This document shows positions 1,907-22,624 of a stretch of 64,000 bases of DNA, in pieces; the first letter of the stretch is position 1; every line of letters begins with the position of its first letter. Position numbers and translations under genes: made by a program. Below the pieces are notes generated by a model that saw only the letters and a list, made by a program, of their open reading frames with translations, was not told where the DNA came from and searched no databases. The stretch is from Agrococcus carbonis (lineage in GTDB: Bacteria; Actinomycetota; Actinomycetes; Actinomycetales; Microbacteriaceae), in the NCBI RefSeq assembly GCF_900104705.1, contig NZ_LT629734.1:1488001-1552000 (forward strand), given 5' to 3'.

Positions 1907-2646
1907 GCGAGCACCTCCTCGATCTCGTCGGCGCCGATGCGGCGCCCGGTGAAGAAGGGGATCTCCTCGCGCACGTGCAGCCGCGCGTCGACCGCCCGCA
2001 GGTCGCGCATCATGTCGACGAGGTCGACGAGGTCGTCGGCCTCGAGCGGCAGGATCCACTCGTAGTCGCCGAGCGCGAACGCGGCGACGGTGTTGGCGAC
2101 GACGCCGCGGTAGACGGCGCCCGCCCTGCCGTGCTCGGCGAGCATGCGGCTGCGCTCGTCGGCCGGCAGCAGGTACCACTCGTACGAGCGGTTGAACGGG
2201 TAGACCGTCACCCATCGCTTCGGGTCGACCCCGCGCAGGAATCCGGGCACGTGGCGCTTGTTGAACTCGGCGTCGCGGTGCACGCCCATCGCGCCCCACA
2301 CCTGCGTCGTGCCGGCGAGCTCGCGCGAGCGGCGCACGCGTCGCACCGCCGCCTGCAGCGCCTCGGGCGCGGTGCGGGCGCCGGCGGCGCCGTGGAGCCA
2401 CACGAGGATGTCGGCGTCGGCGCGCATGCCCGACACGTCGTAGATGCCGCGCGCGACGACGCCCTCGGCCTCGAGCGCCGCGAGCTCGTCGGCGAGCGGC
2501 GCGCCGCCCTCGGCGGGGCCCTGGCCCCGCTGGAAGACGGCCCAGATCGTGTAGCCGTCGCCCAGGTCGTCGGCGGTCGGGCCGTCGGTGCCGTGCCCGT
2601 GCGGTGCTGCGTCGTGCGGTGCTGCGTCGTGCGTCTGCTCGCTCAT
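1903..2646 (-). CDS. hemQ: Coproheme decarboxylase
   Basis: Oxidatively decarboxylates coproheme to haem b with H2O2, the last step of the coproporphyrin pathway (also called chdC). It is 247 aa from an ATG at 2646 that overlaps the cgoX stop (ATGA). The chlorite-dismutase-like fold is recognisable from the block RWVTVYPFNRSYEWYLLP, with the Tyr and Trp conserved in decarboxylating family members, followed by MLAEHGRAG and GDYEWILPLEADDL. The first 25 residues are a His/Ala/Asp-rich leader (AAPHDAAPHGHG) of unknown role. Lying between hemH and cgoX, it identifies the Gram-positive coproporphyrin branch rather than the protoporphyrin branch. Confidence 0.95.
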   Translation of the reverse strand: MSEQTHDAAPHDAAPHGHGTDGPTADDLGDGYTIWAVFQRGQGPAEGGAPLADELAALEAEGVVARGIYDVSGMRADADILVWLHGAAGARTAPEALQAAVRRVRRSRELAGTTQVWGAMGVHRDAEFNKRHVPGFLRGVDPKRWVTVYPFNRSYEWYLLPADERSRMLAEHGRAGAVYRGVVANTVAAFALGDYEWILPLEADDLVDLVDMMRDLRAVDARLHVREEIPFFTGRRIGADEIEEVLA

Positions 2647-4394
2647 GCGTCTCCTCGTGCTGCGTCGTCGGTGGGGGCGGATGCGTCGCGCCGCCCGGTC
2701 GCGGAGGCCCCGTCGGCCTCCAGGTCGGTGCCGCTGTCGTGCTCCAGGTCGTCCGTCCAGGGCGTGCCGCGCACGGCGAACCGCTCGCGGCGGATCTCGA
2801 GCGCCGCCCGCCGGGCGTCGGGCACGACCTGCGCGAGGCCCGTGCCGGCGACCGCGGCGCCGACGACGACCAGGCCGTCGTGCGCGGCAGCGGCATCGCG
2901 CAGCTGCTGCTGGCGGTCGCGCGCGCCGAGCACGCTCGAGGGCTGTCCCTGCTGCCAGCGCACGCGCGCGGTCGCGACCGGCTGCGGCAGCGCGGTGCCG
3001 AAGATCGCCTGCGCGTCCTCGAGCGCGAGCGCGGCGGCGGCCTCGTCGTCGAGGCCCTCGGTCGCGGGAGCGGCGCCGCCGGCGCTGCCGTACGAGAGGC
3101 GCACGATCTCGCGGCCGGCGGCCGCCTCGCGCAGCCACGGCCACTTGGCGGTCGCGTGGGTCATCGCCTTCGCGCGGATGCCCGTGGCGTCGGCGGCGAC
3201 GAGCACCCCCGTGCCGCGCGGGTCGCCGGAGACGGCGCCGGCGGGCAGGACGAGGGTGACGAGCTCGACGGTGGCGCCGGGGTCGACGGTGTGGTCTCGT
3301 GACGCGAGCGCCTCCGGCGCGCGCTCCTCGACCGGCGGAGTGGAGGCGAGCGCCTCCATCGCGCGCTCCTCCACCGGCGGAGTGGAGGCGAGCGCCTCCG
3401 GCGCGCGCTCCTCGACCGGCGGAGTGGACGCGAGCGGCAGGAGGAGGCGGCGGGCCTCGGGCTCGGGGAGCGCGACGACCACGGACGACGCGGCGAGCGC
3501 GCCCGCATCCGTCTCGACGCTCCAGCCGGTGTCGGTCGGCGCGATCGCGGCGACGCGGACGCCCGTGCGGATCTCGGCGCGGTGCTCTCGCGCGCGCTCG
3601 GCGAGCGCATCGACGAGGCGGTGGATGCCGCCGCGCACGCCCTGCACGGCGCTGCCGGGCTTCGCGTCGGCACCGGCGGCGCCCGCTGCTGCGCGCTCCT
3701 CGAGCACGAAGGCGACGCCGCCCGAGAGCGAGCCCGTGCGCGTGATGCCGTTGTTGAGGCCCGGGGCGACGACGGCGATGTCGAGCAGCTCGGGATCGGC
3801 CGAGTAGACGCCGCCCGCGAGCGGCGCGACGAGCCGGTCGAGCACCTTCTGGCCCATCCGGCGTCGCACGAGCGGGCCGAGCGCGTCGTCCTTGCCGATG
3901 CGCAGCACCGGCATGAGCCGGTCGAGGTAGGCGCGGAGCGCCCCGCCCCAGCCGAGCGCGTCGATGACGTCCTGCGCGAGCGGGGTCGACGGGATGCCGA
4001 GCAGCGTGCGCTTCGGCAGCGGCACGGCCCGATCCTCGAGCTGCAGCCAGGCGCCTGCCGGGTTCGGATCGACGATGTCGTCGGCGAGGCCCAGCTCGCC
4101 GAGCAGCTCGGCGACGGCTCCGCCGCGCACCGCGAACGACTCCGCGCCCGCGTCGAGCCGCAGGCCGTCGAGCTCGAGCGCGGCAGCGGTGCCGCCCACG
4201 CGGTCGGTCGCCTCGAGCACGAGCACGCGGTAGCCGCGGCCCGCGAGCTCGTGCGCGACCGTGAGCCCCGCGATGCCCGCGCCGGCCACGATCGTGTCGT
4301 ACTGCGGGGCGGGGCCAGGCGCATCCGCCGCCGGCGACGCGGCTCGCGCGTCGGCGACCGCGCCGGTGCGCTCGGCGCCGCTGTGGTCGGTCAC
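2643..4394 (-). CDS. hemY: Coproporphyrinogen III oxidase (HemY/CgoX, FAD-dependent)
   Basis: Oxidises coproporphyrinogen III to coproporphyrin III; a soluble or membrane-associated flavoprotein of the PPO/amine-oxidase fold. It is 583 aa from a GTG at 4394 that overlaps the hemE stop. The first 35 residues are a low-complexity leader. The dinucleotide motif GAGIAGLTVAHELAGRG and EATDRVGG mark FAD binding; GIHRLVDALAE and GTGLAQVVPDARRAA are conserved later blocks. Usual family length is about 450-480 aa. The excess comes from the leader and from a tandem insertion at about residues 321-365, three copies of a 14-aa unit (ASTPPVEERAPEAL) that interrupts a conserved region. Confidence 0.93.
   Translation of the reverse strand: MTDHSGAERTGAVADARAASPAADAPGPAPQYDTIVAGAGIAGLTVAHELAGRGYRVLVLEATDRVGGTAAALELDGLRLDAGAESFAVRGGAVAELLGELGLADDIVDPNPAGAWLQLEDRAVPLPKRTLLGIPSTPLAQDVIDALGWGGALRAYLDRLMPVLRIGKDDALGPLVRRRMGQKVLDRLVAPLAGGVYSADPELLDIAVVAPGLNNGITRTGSLSGGVAFVLEERAAAGAAGADAKPGSAVQGVRGGIHRLVDALAERAREHRAEIRTGVRVAAIAPTDTGWSVETDAGALAASSVVVALPEPEARRLLLPLASTPPVEERAPEALASTPPVEERAMEALASTPPVEERAPEALASRDHTVDPGATVELVTLVLPAGAVSGDPRGTGVLVAADATGIRAKAMTHATAKWPWLREAAAGREIVRLSYGSAGGAAPATEGLDDEAAAALALEDAQAIFGTALPQPVATARVRWQQGQPSSVLGARDRQQQLRDAAAAHDGLVVVGAAVAGTGLAQVVPDARRAALEIRRERFAVRGTPWTDDLEHDSGTDLEADGASATGRRDASAPTDDAARGDA
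3292..3429. repeat. REP-like element captured and triplicated inside hemY
   Basis: Three direct 42-bp copies start at 3304, 3346 and 3388, with a fourth partial copy beginning at 3430. The first copy with its left flank (3292-3338) has the same architecture as the intergenic REP-like sequence at 32243-32288: a shared 15-base block (TGGTCTCGTGACGCG), a 14-base variable palindromic part and a shared 13-base block (GCGCTCCTCGACC). In frame this encodes a Pro/Glu/Ala-rich 14-aa repeat. Because 42 is divisible by 3, copy-number change keeps the frame open. Confidence 0.85.
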
Positions 4395-5512
4395 CGCGCG
4401 TGCACCGCCTCGACGATGCGCGTGAGCACCGCGGGGTCGGTCGTCGGGGGCACGCCGTGGCCGAGGTTGAACACGTGCGCGCGCGCGACGGAGCCCGCGA
4501 GCATCACGTGGTCGATCGCCGCCTCGACGATCTCCCACGGCGCGCCGAGCACCGCAGGGTCGAGGTTGCCCTGCACGGTCACGTCGCTGTCGATGCGCTC
4601 GAGCGCGACGTCGAGCGAGACGCGCCAGTCGACGCCGATCGCGTCGACGTCGAGGTCCATCGCGCTGTAGAGCTCGCCCGCTCCGACGCCGAAGTGCACG
4701 AGCGGGACGCGCGCGCCCGACGCATCCGTCAGCTCCCGCACCCCGTCGAGCGCCGCGCGCGAGGCGGGCGCGACGTGCTCCTGGTACTGGTCGAGCGGCA
4801 GCGAGCCGGCCCACGAGTCGAACAGCTGGGCGGCGCTCGCGCCCTCCTCGACCTGCGCGCGGAGGAAGCGGGAGGTGACGTCGGCGGCCCAGCGCGTCAG
4901 CCGGTCCCACGCCTCGGGGTGCGCGCGCATGAGGCTGCGCGCCTCGAGGTGGTCCTTCGAGGGGCGGCCGGCGACGAGGTAGGCGGCGAGCGTGAAGGGG
5001 GCGCCGGCGAAGCCGATGAGCGGGGTCGAGCCGTCACCGATCTCGGCGAGGCCCGCGACCGTGCGCCGCACGCCCTCGCGCACGGGCTCGAGCGTCTCCT
5101 CGAGCGCGGCGGGGTCGAGCGCGACGAGCCGCTCGACGTCCTCGGGGCTCCGCACCGCCTCGGCCATCACGGGGCCCACGCCCGGCTCGATCGTGACGTC
5201 GACGCCCGCGAGCTTGAGCGGCACCATGATGTCGCTGAAGAAGATGGCGGCGTCGACGCCGTGGCGCCGCACCGGCTGCAGCGTGATCTCGCTCGCGAGC
5301 GCCGGGTCGAGGCACGTGTCGAGCATGCCGCGGCCCGCGGCGCTCTCGGCAGCGCGCAGCTCGCGGTACTCCGGCAGGGAGCGCCCGGCCTGCCGCATGA
5401 ACCACACGGGGGTCACCTCGGGGCGGTCGCCGCGGTACGCGCGCACGAGCCGGGAGGCGCCGGTGCGGGTGTTGAGCGGATGGTCTTCACGGAGCGCAGG
5501 CATCCCCGCCAT
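4391..5512 (-). CDS. hemE: Uroporphyrinogen decarboxylase
   Basis: Decarboxylates the four acetate side chains of uroporphyrinogen III to give coproporphyrinogen III. It is 373 aa, the normal length. The signature near the N terminus, TPVWFMRQAGRSLPEYR, and the second block GFAGAPFTLAAYLV are intact, as is the C-terminal FNLGHGVPP. The ATG at 5512 has GGAAG seven bases upstream; an ATG at 5503 is the alternative. It is the first gene of the minus-strand haem operon and is divergent from hemA across 89 bp, so the two arms of the pathway can share one control region. Confidence 0.95.
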   Translation of the reverse strand: MAGMPALREDHPLNTRTGASRLVRAYRGDRPEVTPVWFMRQAGRSLPEYRELRAAESAAGRGMLDTCLDPALASEITLQPVRRHGVDAAIFFSDIMVPLKLAGVDVTIEPGVGPVMAEAVRSPEDVERLVALDPAALEETLEPVREGVRRTVAGLAEIGDGSTPLIGFAGAPFTLAAYLVAGRPSKDHLEARSLMRAHPEAWDRLTRWAADVTSRFLRAQVEEGASAAQLFDSWAGSLPLDQYQEHVAPASRAALDGVRELTDASGARVPLVHFGVGAGELYSAMDLDVDAIGVDWRVSLDVALERIDSDVTVQGNLDPAVLGAPWEIVEAAIDHVMLAGSVARAHVFNLGHGVPPTTDPAVLTRIVEAVHAR

Positions 5513-5589
5513 TCTCCCACTTCCGGGGGACTCGCGGGGCCGGGCTCGAGGCCGACCGGCTTGGAGTCTGATATGGATGCGGATCGGGG

Positions 5590-5595
5590 TACGAT
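5590..5595 (+). promoter_or_regulatory. Putative minus-10 of hemA (leaderless)
   Basis: TACGAT lies exactly six bases before the hemA ATG, which would place the transcript start at or next to the start codon. No convincing Shine-Dalgarno sequence is present and the minus-35 is not clear. Confidence 0.45.
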
Positions 5596-5601
5596 GGACC
5601 G

Positions 5602-7038
5602 ATGCTGATCTGCCTCACGGCGAGTCACAAGAACGCCGACTTCACCGCGCTCGAGGCGCTGTCGTCGGCAGACGCCGCGCAGCTGCCCACCGCCTTCGCC
5701 TCCCACCCCGCCGTCGACGGGGCGGTCGTCGTCTCCACCTGCAACCGCTTCGAGGTCTACCTCGACGTCGACGCCGACGCCGACGCGGCGGCCGGCATCG
5801 CCCAGACGGCGGCGGCGGATGCGCTCGGGTTCCACCACCCGGAGACCCTCGAGCCGCTCGCCGACGCGCGCGCCGCCGAGCACCTGTTCGCCGTCGCCGC
5901 GGGCCTCGAGTCGGTCGTGATCGGCGAGGGCGAGATCGCCGGCCAGGTGCGCCGCGCGCTCAGCTCGGCGCAGGAGGCCGGCACCACGAGCCCCCACCTC
6001 GAGCGCCTGTTCCAGCGCGCCGCCGAGACGCAGCGCGGCATCAAGAACCGCACGGGGCTCGGCGAGGCCGGCCGCTCGATCGTTCGCCTCGCCCTCGACC
6101 TCGCGAGCGCGCGCGTCGACCTCGCCGACGCGCGCGTGCTGCTCGTCGGCACCGGCCGCTTCGCGGGCGTCTCGCTCGCCGAGCTGCGCCGCCGCGGCGC
6201 CAAGCACATCGAGGTCTGGAGCCCCTCGGGCCGCGGCGACGGCTTCGCCCGCAGCCACGCCGTCGCCCACGTCGACGGCCGCGACGCCGCGCTCGCCGCC
6301 GCGAGCGCCGACGTGATCGTCACCTGCACGAGCGCCGAGCACCACGTCGTCGATGCCGAGCTGCTGCTGCGCGGGCGCTCGATGCTCGCGGCGACCCACG
6401 CGTTCCCGGGCTCCGCGGCCGAGGCCGCTGACGCATCCGGATGCCCCGTGCACGTGGGCGCAGAGCCGCAGCCCGCGCTCGTCGGCGCGGCCGCGGGCGC
6501 CCCCGAGCCCGGTCGCGCGGCGGCCGCCGGATGCCCCGTGCACGCCGCCGTGACCGCCGAGCCGCGCTGCCCCGTGGAGCACGGCCGCTCGGCGCAGCTC
6601 ATCGTCGACATGGGCATGCCCCGCAACGTCGACCCCGACGTGCAGAGCGTGCACGGCGTCGAGGTGCTCGACCTCGAGACCATCCGCCTGCACGCGCCGC
6701 TCGAGCACCTCACCGCGACCGAGGACGCCCGCGACCTCGTGCGCAAGGCCGCGCGACGCTTCGAGCGCGGCACCGCCGAGCGGCAGATCGGCCCCGCGAT
6801 CGCGGCCCTGCGCGAGCACGTGCAGGAGGCGATGGAGGCCGAGCTCGAGCGCATCGCCAAGCGCGGGACCGAGGACGAGCGACGGCTCGCCGAGCAGGCG
6901 CTGCGCCACTTCGCGGGCGTGCTGCTGCACAAGCCCACCGTGCGCGCGCGCCAGCTCGCGGCCGAGGGCCGCCAGGACGACTTCCTCGCCGCGATCGACG
7001 CGCTCTACGGCATCGACGCCGCCGCCGACGCGGCGTGA
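5602..7038 (+). CDS. hemA: Glutamyl-tRNA reductase with Cys-Pro-motif insertion
   Basis: NADPH-dependent reduction of glutamyl-tRNA to glutamate-1-semialdehyde, the committed step of haem synthesis. It is 478 aa. Visible are the catalytic Cys47 (STCNRFEVYL), the block GLESVVIGEGEIAGQVR, the nucleotide-binding region VLLVGTGRFAGVSLAELRRRG and the C-terminal dimerisation helices. Between MLA (262) and LIVDMGMPRNVDP (333) there is an insertion of about 65 residues, where the family usually has about 10-15 residues. It contains GCPVH (Cys281), GCPVH (Cys311) and RCPVEH (Cys323), resembling haem regulatory motifs. The two GCPVH codings share a 15-base direct repeat. The insertion is a candidate haem sensor; that role is inferred. 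Confidence 0.95.
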   Translation: MLICLTASHKNADFTALEALSSADAAQLPTAFASHPAVDGAVVVSTCNRFEVYLDVDADADAAAGIAQTAAADALGFHHPETLEPLADARAAEHLFAVAAGLESVVIGEGEIAGQVRRALSSAQEAGTTSPHLERLFQRAAETQRGIKNRTGLGEAGRSIVRLALDLASARVDLADARVLLVGTGRFAGVSLAELRRRGAKHIEVWSPSGRGDGFARSHAVAHVDGRDAALAAASADVIVTCTSAEHHVVDAELLLRGRSMLAATHAFPGSAAEAADASGCPVHVGAEPQPALVGAAAGAPEPGRAAAAGCPVHAAVTAEPRCPVEHGRSAQLIVDMGMPRNVDPDVQSVHGVEVLDLETIRLHAPLEHLTATEDARDLVRKAARRFERGTAERQIGPAIAALREHVQEAMEAELERIAKRGTEDERRLAEQALRHFAGVLLHKPTVRARQLAAEGRQDDFLAAIDALYGIDAAADAA

Positions 7039-21221: not shown

Positions 21222-21256
21222 TTCGCTCGTCGAGTAGGCCGCGCAGCGGCCGTATC
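21222..21256. repeat. REP-like element split by the IS110 insertion (left half)
   Basis: The left half ends with GGCCGTATC at 21248-21256. The right half resumes as TCGAGACGACC at 22596-22606. Joined at one TC they restore the same order seen in the uninterrupted copy at 32330-32362 (CGCTCGTCGAGTAGGC, then ATCGAGACG). Confidence 0.8.
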
Positions 21257-21299
21257 TCTCATAGTCATTGGCTGGCCTGGGGCTGGCTGGCAGGCTGGC

Positions 21300-21480
21300 A
21301 GGCTGGCACCAGCTTCCCGCGGATGTGACTCTGGCCGTATCTGTCCCGTTGCGGCGGTGACCTCGTCTCGACCTGTCCGTCCGTGGGGGGCCGGTGCCGG
21401 CCCGTCCGCGCCGGTGGCTTGATAGAAGGTTGTCCAACCTGGCGGTTGTGACTTGTGAGAGATCTGCCTCCGGAGCGACT
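21300..21480 (+). ncRNA. IS110 bridge RNA (boundaries approximate)
   Basis: Four guide segments occur in the order known for IS110 bridge RNAs. Left target guide GGCCGTATCT (21333-21342) is identical to the left flank 21248-21257. Right target guide TCGTCTCGA (21363-21371) is the reverse complement of core plus right flank (22596-22604). Left donor guide ATAGAAGG (21422-21429) is identical to the element's right end (22587-22594). Right donor guide TGAGAGAT (21456-21463) is the reverse complement of core plus left end (21254-21261). The donor loop is closed by CCGGTGG (21411-21417) with CCTCCGG (21467-21473) and holds an inner GGTT/AACC hairpin. The ends of the RNA are estimates. Confidence 0.85.
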
Positions 21481-21527
21481 TCCCAGGGCCGGCACCGTAA
21501 CGGTCCCGATCCTGAGGAGGAACCGCG

Positions 21528-22577
21528 ATGACCATCGTCGCAGACCGATGCACGCATGTCATGGGTGTGGACACACACGCGAAGACCCACACGTACGCGA
21601 TCGTCCAGGCCGCCACCGGCGCCGTGGTCGCCGCGGCGACGTTCCCCGTCACGCCGGCGGGCCTGGACCGTGCGCTGGCCTGGGCGCAGCGTCGCGCGCC
21701 CGGCTACGTGGCCGCGGTCGAGGGCACCGCCTCCTACGGCGCGACCCTCACGGCGCGGCTGCAGCAGGCCGGCACGGTCGTGTTCGAAGCGCGGCCGCCC
21801 AAGCGCGCCTCCCGCGCGGGCCGCGGCAAGTCGGATCAGATCGACGCGGTCGCCGCCGCCCGGTCGGTGCTTAGCGAACCGCTCGAGCGGCTCGCGACGC
21901 CGCGCTCGGGCGAGCTGCGGCGGGCGCTGCAGCTGCTGCTGACCGCTCGCCGGCTGCTCGAGCGGCAACGCGCGCAGGACCACAACGCGCTCACCGCGAT
22001 CGTCCGCCGCATCGAACTGGGCATCGACGCGCGCAAGGCGCTCACCGACAGGCAGGTCGAGCAGATCGCCGCCTGGCGGACGCGGACGACGGACTCGATC
22101 GCGCAGGCGATCGCCCGCGCCGAAGCGACGCGACTCGCCCGCCAGAGCCGGCTGCGCGCCGCCGAGCTGAAGGACAACAAAGCGATGCTGGAGCGGCACG
22201 TGCGAACGCTCGCGCCCGAACTGCTGGAGGAGGTCGGCATCGGCCCGGTCAGCGCCGCCGCCTGCATCGCGGCCTACTCCCACCACGGACGTGTCCGCTC
22301 CGAGGCCGCGTTCGCGTCGCTCGCCGGAGTCGCACCGATCCCCGCCTCCAGCGGCAACACGCAGCGGCACCGCCTCAACCGGCACGGCGACCGGCGCCTG
22401 AACGCCGCGCTCGACACCATCGTCCGCACCCGACTGCGCTCCGACCCCACCACCCGCGCATACCGCGACCAGCACCTCGCCGAAGGCAAGACCAACGCCG
22501 ACATCCGCCGCCTGCTCAAGCGCTACACCGCCCGCAGCACCTACCGGACCCTGAAGAAGATCCTCAACAACACTTGA
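21528..22577 (+). CDS. IS110-family transposase (bridge-RNA-guided recombinase)
   Basis: 349 aa, intact, with GAGGAGG before the ATG. The N-terminal RuvC-like DEDD domain has Asp15 (MGVDTHAKTH), Glu65 (AVEGTASYG), Asp103 and Asp106 (KSDQIDAVAAARS). A coiled-coil region (about 130-225) leads to the C-terminal Tnp domain with IGPVSAAACIAAYSHHG and the catalytic serine region PIPASSGNTQRHR (Ser274 or Ser275). No frameshift or stop is seen, so the element may be active. The gene is on the same strand as its bridge RNA. Confidence 0.95.
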   Translation: MTIVADRCTHVMGVDTHAKTHTYAIVQAATGAVVAAATFPVTPAGLDRALAWAQRRAPGYVAAVEGTASYGATLTARLQQAGTVVFEARPPKRASRAGRGKSDQIDAVAAARSVLSEPLERLATPRSGELRRALQLLLTARRLLERQRAQDHNALTAIVRRIELGIDARKALTDRQVEQIAAWRTRTTDSIAQAIARAEATRLARQSRLRAAELKDNKAMLERHVRTLAPELLEEVGIGPVSAAACIAAYSHHGRVRSEAAFASLAGVAPIPASSGNTQRHRLNRHGDRRLNAALDTIVRTRLRSDPTTRAYRDQHLAEGKTNADIRRLLKRYTARSTYRTLKKILNNT

Positions 22578-22624
22578 CACCGACACATAGAAGGGTCGAG
22601 ACGACCCCACCGCGCCCCTCGGCA

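What the first reader, a model, noticed from the sequence alone, without database searches (positions are those of the whole stretch)
21255..22606. Complete IS110 bridge RNA with all four guide segments readable against its own insertion site
Seen: four short matches in the 5' non-coding end occur in the order left-target, right-target, left-donor, right-donor guide. GGCCGTATCT (21333) equals the left flank; TCGTCTCGA (21363) complements core plus right flank; ATAGAAGG (21422) equals the right end; TGAGAGAT (21456) complements core plus left end. The implied target is GGCCGTA-TC-GAGACGA with core TC. Known: IS110 elements such as IS621 use a bridge RNA with this layout. The element, its TC core and its guides are, to my knowledge, not described.
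Basis: partly seen in the sequence, partly recalled or inferred. Interest (0 to 1): 0.85.

Follow-up and report, generated by a model that had tools for sequence, protein, structure and literature searches.

The report
IS110 jumping gene with bridge RNA
This is a complete RNA-guided jumping gene of a recently discovered kind, whose guide RNA visibly spells out both its own ends and the repeated DNA sequence it landed in; it is a well-supported new example rather than a new kind of system.

Summary
Confirmed. Window 21255-22597 is one intact IS110-group element in an Agrococcus-like chromosome: a 349-aa DEDD recombinase, a 271-nt left end encoding a bridge RNA, an 18-nt right end and a TC core at both junctions. 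All four claimed guide matches are real and in order; shuffled left ends never held more than two of the four. A covariance model built from 15 relatives without this element finds it at 99.7 bits, the only hit in window and genome. Over 32 loci (this one included), with guides placed by the model and flanks by the conserved ends, guides follow their own flanks far beyond permutation. A two-base handshake guide also matches the donor. A promoter's two boxes (-35 in the right end, -10 in the left end) meet only at the circle junction. The target is a dispersed palindromic repeat: one exact uninterrupted copy remains in this genome, and a sister species' element carries altered guides matching another variant of that repeat. 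Layout and mechanism are those published for IS621. New member of a known kind. Activity is untested; only one copy exists.

The parts
21255..22597 (+). IS110-group element including both TC core copies
   Evidence: single copy in genome
21248..21254 (+). Left target flank GGCCGTA, part of a dispersed palindromic repeat
21255..21256 (+). Left copy of core dinucleotide TC
21257..21262 (+). TCTCAT, -10-like box of the promoter formed at the circle junction (4 of 6 to TATAAT)
21319..21471 (+). Bridge RNA core region (full-length match to covariance model R1, 99.7 bits)
21333..21341 (+). Left target guide GGCCGTATC (7 nt + core)
21363..21371 (+). Right target guide TCGTCTCGA (7 nt + core complement; across the 32 loci the signal covers 5 nt + core)
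21372..21373 (+). Handshake guide CC of the target loop, complementary to donor bases GG beside the core
21422..21429 (+). Left donor guide ATAGAAGG, equal to the right end of the element
21456..21462 (+). Right donor guide TGAGAGA, complementary to core plus left end
21463..21464 (+). Handshake guide TC of the donor loop; first base pairs with target A21254, second does not
21528..22577 (+). IS110 recombinase, 349 aa: D15, E65, D103, D106 and S275
22574..22579 (+). TTGACA, -35 box overlapping the recombinase stop codon; 18 nt from the -10 in the circular form
22578..22595 (+). Right end (18 nt), ending in left donor ATAGAAGGG
22596..22597 (+). Right copy of core dinucleotide TC
22598..22604 (+). 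Right target flank GAGACGA

Best explanation
An intact IS110-group insertion sequence that moves as a circle. Excision joins the right end, TC and the left end; this builds a sigma-70-like promoter (TTGACA, 18 nt, TCTCAT) that reads out the bridge RNA of the left end. The RNA's first loop pairs with a target GGCCGTA-TC-GAGACGA and its second loop with the element's own ends ATAGAAGGG-TC-TCTCA. The recombinase then exchanges strands at TC, helped by handshake bases. Here the target is one copy of a dispersed palindromic repeat of the host genus. Shown by sequence: the ends, core, guide matches, RNA fold, co-variation and repeat target. Inferred by homology to IS621: the circle, RNA expression, protein binding and strand exchange.
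For: Recombinase families; alignment to the IS621 chain with the DEDD and serine positions in register. Four guides each found once; none of 50,000 shuffles held three or more. Fold with guides in two internal loops. Consensus fold of 20 homologous left ends: 39 pairs, 30 of them with at least one both-sided change. Model R1 from 15 relatives hits only this spot in window and genome and, at E up to 0.1, 73 of 79 homologous loci given, 7 of which were training loci. In 32 loci: RTG 149 of 160 bases (permuted 64.4, sd 7.6, max 94), LTG 143 of 224 (73.8, 8.2, max 106), RDG 158 of 160 (131.2, max 146), TBL handshake 57 of 64 (25.5, 3.6, max 43). Exact intact target elsewhere in the genome. Sister element L010 with changed LTG and equally changed left flank, and three exact predicted sites in its genome. 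Junction promoter at 10 or more of 12 consensus bases in 20 of 27 loci against 0.2% of shuffled junctions.
Against: A single copy in the genome, so recent activity is not shown. DBL handshake pairs at only 1 of 2 positions here, and across relatives its position 6 shows no signal (4 of 19, permuted 5.9). No empty orthologous site exists to check. Rfam release 15 had no match here at gathering threshold. Six of 79 homologous loci gave no model hit and two gave only 24-25 bits. Only 36 of 112 loci could be anchored. Permutation tests do not remove all effects of relatedness; collapsed to 19 distinct guide pairs the signal stays (LTG 87 of 133 against 41.0, RTG 90 of 95 against 36.9).
Confidence: 0.95

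Rival explanations
1. The guide matches are chance; the left end is ordinary non-coding DNA or a leader of the transposase gene.
For: A free search for four matches with flexible ends reaches 23-28 of 30 also in loci whose ends I could not anchor, so loose matching alone proves little. The region is G+C-rich.
Against: Exact matches at fixed spacing in the window (29 of 30; none of 50,000 shuffles held three guides), covariance-model hit, co-variation with positions fixed beforehand.
Confidence: 0.01
2. It is a decayed, immobile copy: the anatomy is intact but it no longer moves.
For: Single copy although 20 sites lie within one mismatch of the target pattern. The -10-like box is weaker (4 of 6) and the spacer is 18 nt, where 17 of the 27 loci compared have TCTAAT or TGTAAT at 17 nt.
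Against: Open reading frame intact, catalytic residues present, all guides intact and matching both ends and target. A perfect guide-target match argues against long decay.
Confidence: 0.3
3. An IS1111-type element with its RNA in the right end and long subterminal inverted repeats.
For: Same recombinase family.
Against: Right end is 18 nt, left end 271 nt with the RNA; none of the 9 inverted pairs of 10 nt or more found in the element joins its two ends; target guides precede donor guides and left guide precedes right guide, as in IS621.
Confidence: 0.01

Closest known systems
IS621 (IS110 group), PMC11208160 (passages read) and PMC11208158 (passages and section 11 read)
   Same: DEDD plus Tnp recombinase, bridge RNA in the left end with two internal loops, guide order LTG-RTG-LDG-RDG including the core, handshake guides, circle-junction promoter, insertion into a REP-type repeat
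   Different: Core TC instead of CT, own guides and ends, right target pairing over 7 nt, host an Agrococcus-like actinobacterium, another palindromic repeat; proteins only weakly alike (phmmer 31.9 bits)
seekRNA-guided IS110/IS1111 elements, PMC11187229 (passages read)
   Same: Non-coding-region RNA with matches to both target strands; natural re-direction between relatives (ISEc11 and ISXne4)
   Different: The main text holds no word beginning with 'actino' or 'microbacteri', although the family's founder IS110 comes from Streptomyces; here the re-direction (window against L010) stays within variants of one repeat
Unnamed IS110 elements of Microbacteriaceae, Micrococcaceae and other actinobacteria
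   Same: In the anchored loci, alike ends (TC-TCTn... / ATAGnAGnn-TC) and the same RNA fold
   Different: Different target guides matched to different flanks
REP elements and IS that target them (PMC1525189, search listing only)
   Same: Dispersed palindrome used as landing site
   Different: No Y1 (RAYT-type) transposase found in this genome (PF01797)

Membership tests
IS110 family | DEDD RuvC-like domain plus Transposase_20 domain with catalytic serine | tested here: met
IS110 family | Short core dinucleotide shared by both junctions, no long terminal inverted repeats | tested here: met
   TC at 21255 and 22596; none of the 9 inverted pairs of 10 nt or more joins the two ends
IS110 group (not IS1111) | Left non-coding end longer than right, bridge RNA in the left end | tested here: met
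   271 nt against 18 nt; model hit at 21319-21471
IS110 bridge RNA | Two stem-loops with internal loops, first matching target, second matching donor | tested here: met
IS110 bridge RNA | Guides co-vary with target and donor across relatives | tested here: met
IS110 bridge RNA | Handshake guides pairing with the non-cognate DNA | tested here: inconclusive
   Target-loop handshake clearly met (57 of 64); donor-loop handshake met at position 7 only (13 of 19; position 6 4 of 19)
IS110 family | Promoter reconstituted at the RE-LE circle junction | tested here: met
   Consensus match only; no transcription data
IS110 family | Circular intermediate, RNA-protein complex, recombination | not testable with these tools
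   needs PCR, RNA-seq and a recombination assay
IS1111 group | Long right end carrying the RNA, long subterminal inverted repeats | tested here: not met
   right end 18 nt; no inverted pair of 10 nt or more between the ends

The most novel reading that the evidence does not exclude
One dispersed palindromic repeat family of Agrococcus and its relatives serves as a shared landing ground for several IS110 lineages, and bridge-RNA guides drift to follow the repeat's sequence variants. The window element and its 79%-identical sister L010 differ at two left-guide positions, with the same two changes in their left flanks. A third element (L036) sits in the same repeat on the other strand, and a second lineage (L013, L014) sits in the other half of the repeat.
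Probability: 0.45. Interest if true: 0.5.

Novelty: new member of a known kind. Interest (0 to 1): 0.36.

Why it matters
It adds a fully readable actinobacterial bridge-RNA system with a TC core, perfect 7+2+7 target pairing and a clear target-loop handshake guide, so it is a candidate for testing reprogrammable recombination with a recombinase only distantly related to IS621. It also gives a natural example of guides changing in step with a host repeat. It does not change the understanding of the mechanism.

Tried and rejected
Free four-guide search over the loci: it reaches 23-28 of 30 also in loci whose ends are not anchored, so it was replaced by end-anchored tests. Anchoring worked for 36 of 112 loci (111 homologous loci plus the window; some loci are the same element fetched twice); 76 were not anchored, because of truncated or divergent ends, contig ends, or a left-end motif my pattern did not cover. 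L032 (misplaced right end) and duplicates L082, L125 and L156 were dropped before counting. L091 (chance left anchor) and nine loci of the TCTGTGA type (two of them, L158 and L049, also misplaced) were kept; where the model reads their LTG out of register they count as misses. L010 was left out because its right end lies beyond its contig.

Empty orthologous site: rejected as a test. 22 of 23 other genus genomes have the upstream pirin gene. In 21 of these the 600 bases after it could be read (L171 ends there); the best match to the target has 3 to 7 mismatches. In L162, L164 and L175 the same hydrolase gene follows (motif), in L172 and L180 by eye, without the element.

Phage records: no DNA match. 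Viral contigs: one weak relative. Plasmids: 25 records with relatives, all below 60% identity. Rfam: three tRNAs in the window, nothing at this place. RAYT origin of the repeat: no Y1 transposase found in the genome. Papers: 'bridge RNA' with Microbacteriaceae 0; Agrococcus with insertion sequence and IS110 0; REP with Microbacterium 14, of which the 10 listed titles do not concern IS110. These searches cover only the held open library; ISfinder was not searchable, so 'not described' rests on that alone.

Inferred or recalled: genus Agrococcus for the window is inferred because G004's IS110 locus and a contig of Agrococcus casei LMG 22410 agree in contig length and position (L011, L104); IS621 residue numbers against the 8wt6 chain assume a two-residue offset.

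Full report
What is there. The window lies in a 2.77-Mb single-contig genome. Its genus contains G004, whose IS110 locus agrees in contig length and position with a contig of Agrococcus casei LMG 22410 (L011, L104), so I call the host Agrococcus-like. From 21255 to 22597 there is one insertion sequence: core TC, a 271-nt left end, a 349-aa recombinase gene (21528-22577), an 18-nt right end, and core TC again. It is the only copy in the genome; the other seven DNA matches are pieces of 25-60 bases with E from 3e-6 to 9e-4. None of the nine inverted pairs of 10 nt or more inside it joins its two ends; one perfect 12-nt pair (21392-21403 with 21486-21497) brackets the donor loop.

Protein. Pfam finds DEDD_Tnp_IS110 and Transposase_20. 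NCBIfam names it 'IS110 family RNA-guided transposase' above its cut-off. Among solved structures only ISCro4 and IS621 chains match by sequence with a single query, weakly (37.2 and 31.9 bits); with an eight-sequence profile they lead at E 3.5e-15 and 8.4e-15, ahead of four chance-level matches. In the IS621 alignment D15, E65, D103, D106 and S275 fall on the catalytic positions, and all five are invariant in the eight-sequence alignment.

The observation. The four guide words each occur once in the left end, in the order claimed: GGCCGTATC 21333, TCGTCTCGA 21363, ATAGAAGG 21422, TGAGAGA 21456. In 50,000 Markov shuffles of the left end, 49,084 held none, 910 one, 6 two, and none three or four. 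Folding puts the first pair in the internal loop of one hairpin and the second pair in the internal loop of a second hairpin (folding the whole left end from 21255 on gives a different, end-to-end fold). The stretch 21290-21527 folds better than all 200 dinucleotide shuffles (z -3.6).

Relatives. A consensus fold of 20 left ends gives 39 pairs, 30 with at least one both-sided change. A covariance model built from 15 of these 20 (window, L010, L036, L087 and L111 left out) finds the window at 21319-21471 with 99.7 bits, E 6.4e-23, as its only hit up to E 10. It is also the only hit in the whole genome up to E 1. At E up to 0.1 the model hits 73 of the 79 loci given; 7 of the 79 were training loci, two hits (L013, L016) reach only 24-25 bits, and L011, L014, L015, L018, L043 and L110 gave none.

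Co-variation. I fixed the ends by their conserved sequence alone, which worked for 36 of 112 loci, and fixed guide positions by the covariance model. With 32 loci, window included, observed matches against the mean of 20,000 permutations of flanks among loci are: LTG 143 of 224 against 73.8 (max 106); RTG next to the core 149 of 160 against 64.4 (max 94); LDG 193 of 224 against 164.8 (max 178); RDG 158 of 160 against 131.2 (max 146). The two outer RTG bases show no signal over all loci (7 and 9 of 32 against 6.9 and 8.0), although they match in the window. With one locus per distinct guide pair (19), LTG is 87 of 133 against 41.0 and RTG 90 of 95 against 36.9. An earlier test without the model agrees: 475 against 388, sd 7.9, max 424. 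Permutation does not fully remove shared ancestry. The window pairs perfectly: 7 of 7 left, 7 of 7 right.

Handshake guides. Hiraizumi et al. (PMC11208158, section 11 read) describe bases 3' of RTG and RDG that pair with the other DNA after strand exchange. In the window the two bases after the RTG are CC and the donor bases beside the core are GG. Over 32 loci these match 57 of 64 against 25.5 permuted (max 43); the donor-loop counterpart matches 32 of 64 against 21.2, reached in 11 of 20,000. In a 19-locus subset, target-loop positions 7 and 6 match 19 and 14 of 19 (permuted 15.3 and 5.5), donor-loop position 7 matches 13 of 19 (permuted 7.9) and position 6 only 4 of 19 (permuted 5.9), so the donor-loop signal is partial. 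The last LDG base beside the core mismatches in 31 of 32 loci.

Promoter. If right end and left end are joined as in the circle, TTGACA (overlapping the stop codon, 22574-22579) lies 18 nt from TCTCAT (21257-21262), 10 of 12 consensus bases. Of 27 distinct loci, window included, 20 score 10 or more, against 0.2% of shuffled junctions; the seven others score 8-9. I did not look for other promoters. Durrant et al. report such a junction promoter for IS621 (PMC11208160, passages).

Target. The implied target GGCCGTATCGAGACGA has one exact intact copy in this genome, in a context that is again a palindrome-like repeat: CGTCGAGTAGGCC...GGCCGTATCGAGACGACC. Allowing two mismatches to GSCCGTATCGAGACGA there are 60 sites against 5 for the reversed pattern. 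With one mismatch, 16 of 24 genus genomes have sites, up to 24 in one, while the reversed pattern gives 2 sites in all. The element therefore sits in one copy of a dispersed repeat. No Y1 transposase was found in the genome, so I do not call these RAYT-type REPs.

Sister element. L010 (79% identical recombinase, G010) has LTG CGGCGTATC and left flank CGGCGTA-TC: two positions changed against the window in both guide and flank. Its RTG implies GAGACCA on the right; its right end is off the contig and could not be read. The predicted site CGGCGTATCGAGACCA occurs exactly three times in G010, and 37 times with up to two mismatches against 3 for the reversed pattern. G010 also holds four exact copies of the window's target.

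Empty site. In 21 of the 22 relatives that have the upstream gene the next 600 bases could be read, and none holds the target with two or fewer mismatches, so the orthologous test is not available; the paralogous copy serves instead.

Verdict. The system is IS110/IS621-like in every tested defining feature except the donor-loop handshake, which is partial. Excision, RNA expression and recombination are inferred. It is a new member of a known kind.

Noticed in passing
L112 440-2100 (Enteractinococcus helveticum contig): An IS110 element of this kind sits inside the bridge-RNA gene of a second IS110 (whose own ORF 2007-3122 follows), splitting that RNA's right donor guide at GTGACTCA-TC-ACAGTG; the inserted element's guides (TGACTCGTC, TTACTGTGA) match this site at 6 of 7 and 5 of 5 positions beside the core. 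A bridge RNA addressed to another bridge-RNA gene.
   Followed up: partly
L035, L088, L092, L093, L094, L098, L108, L109, L111, L118, L119: Eleven relatives with near-identical guides (GGGTATATC or close variants, with AAAATGA) sit in alike sites: 7 of 11 read AGCGGGTA on the left, 7 of 11 ATTTTGGG on the right, 4 of 11 both. The reverse strand reads to me like the start of an IS3-type transposase gene (recalled, not searched). The two bases left of the core often mismatch the guide.
   Followed up: partly
L013, L014 upstream of the ORF: A second, more distant IS110 lineage in the genus (39-41% identical) has left flank CTACTCGAC, the other half of the same palindromic repeat, and the same word in its left end; its right junction could not be placed with certainty.
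   Followed up: partly
L036 and L125 (Gulosibacter macacae): An element sits in the same palindrome on the opposite strand (CCTCGTC-TC-GATACGG), but its guides match only 4 of 7 (left) and 4 of 5 (right).
   Followed up: partly
L018 and L166 (G005): A different IS110 element lies directly beside the same pirin gene that flanks the window element.
   Followed up: no
G010 loci L020, L022, L024-L027: Six IS110 fragments lie at contig ends, suggesting a multi-copy element that broke the assembly.
   Followed up: no
L087 4192-4338: A second bridge-RNA-like hit (43.6 bits) and a second IS110 ORF (4303-5676) follow the first element.
   Followed up: no
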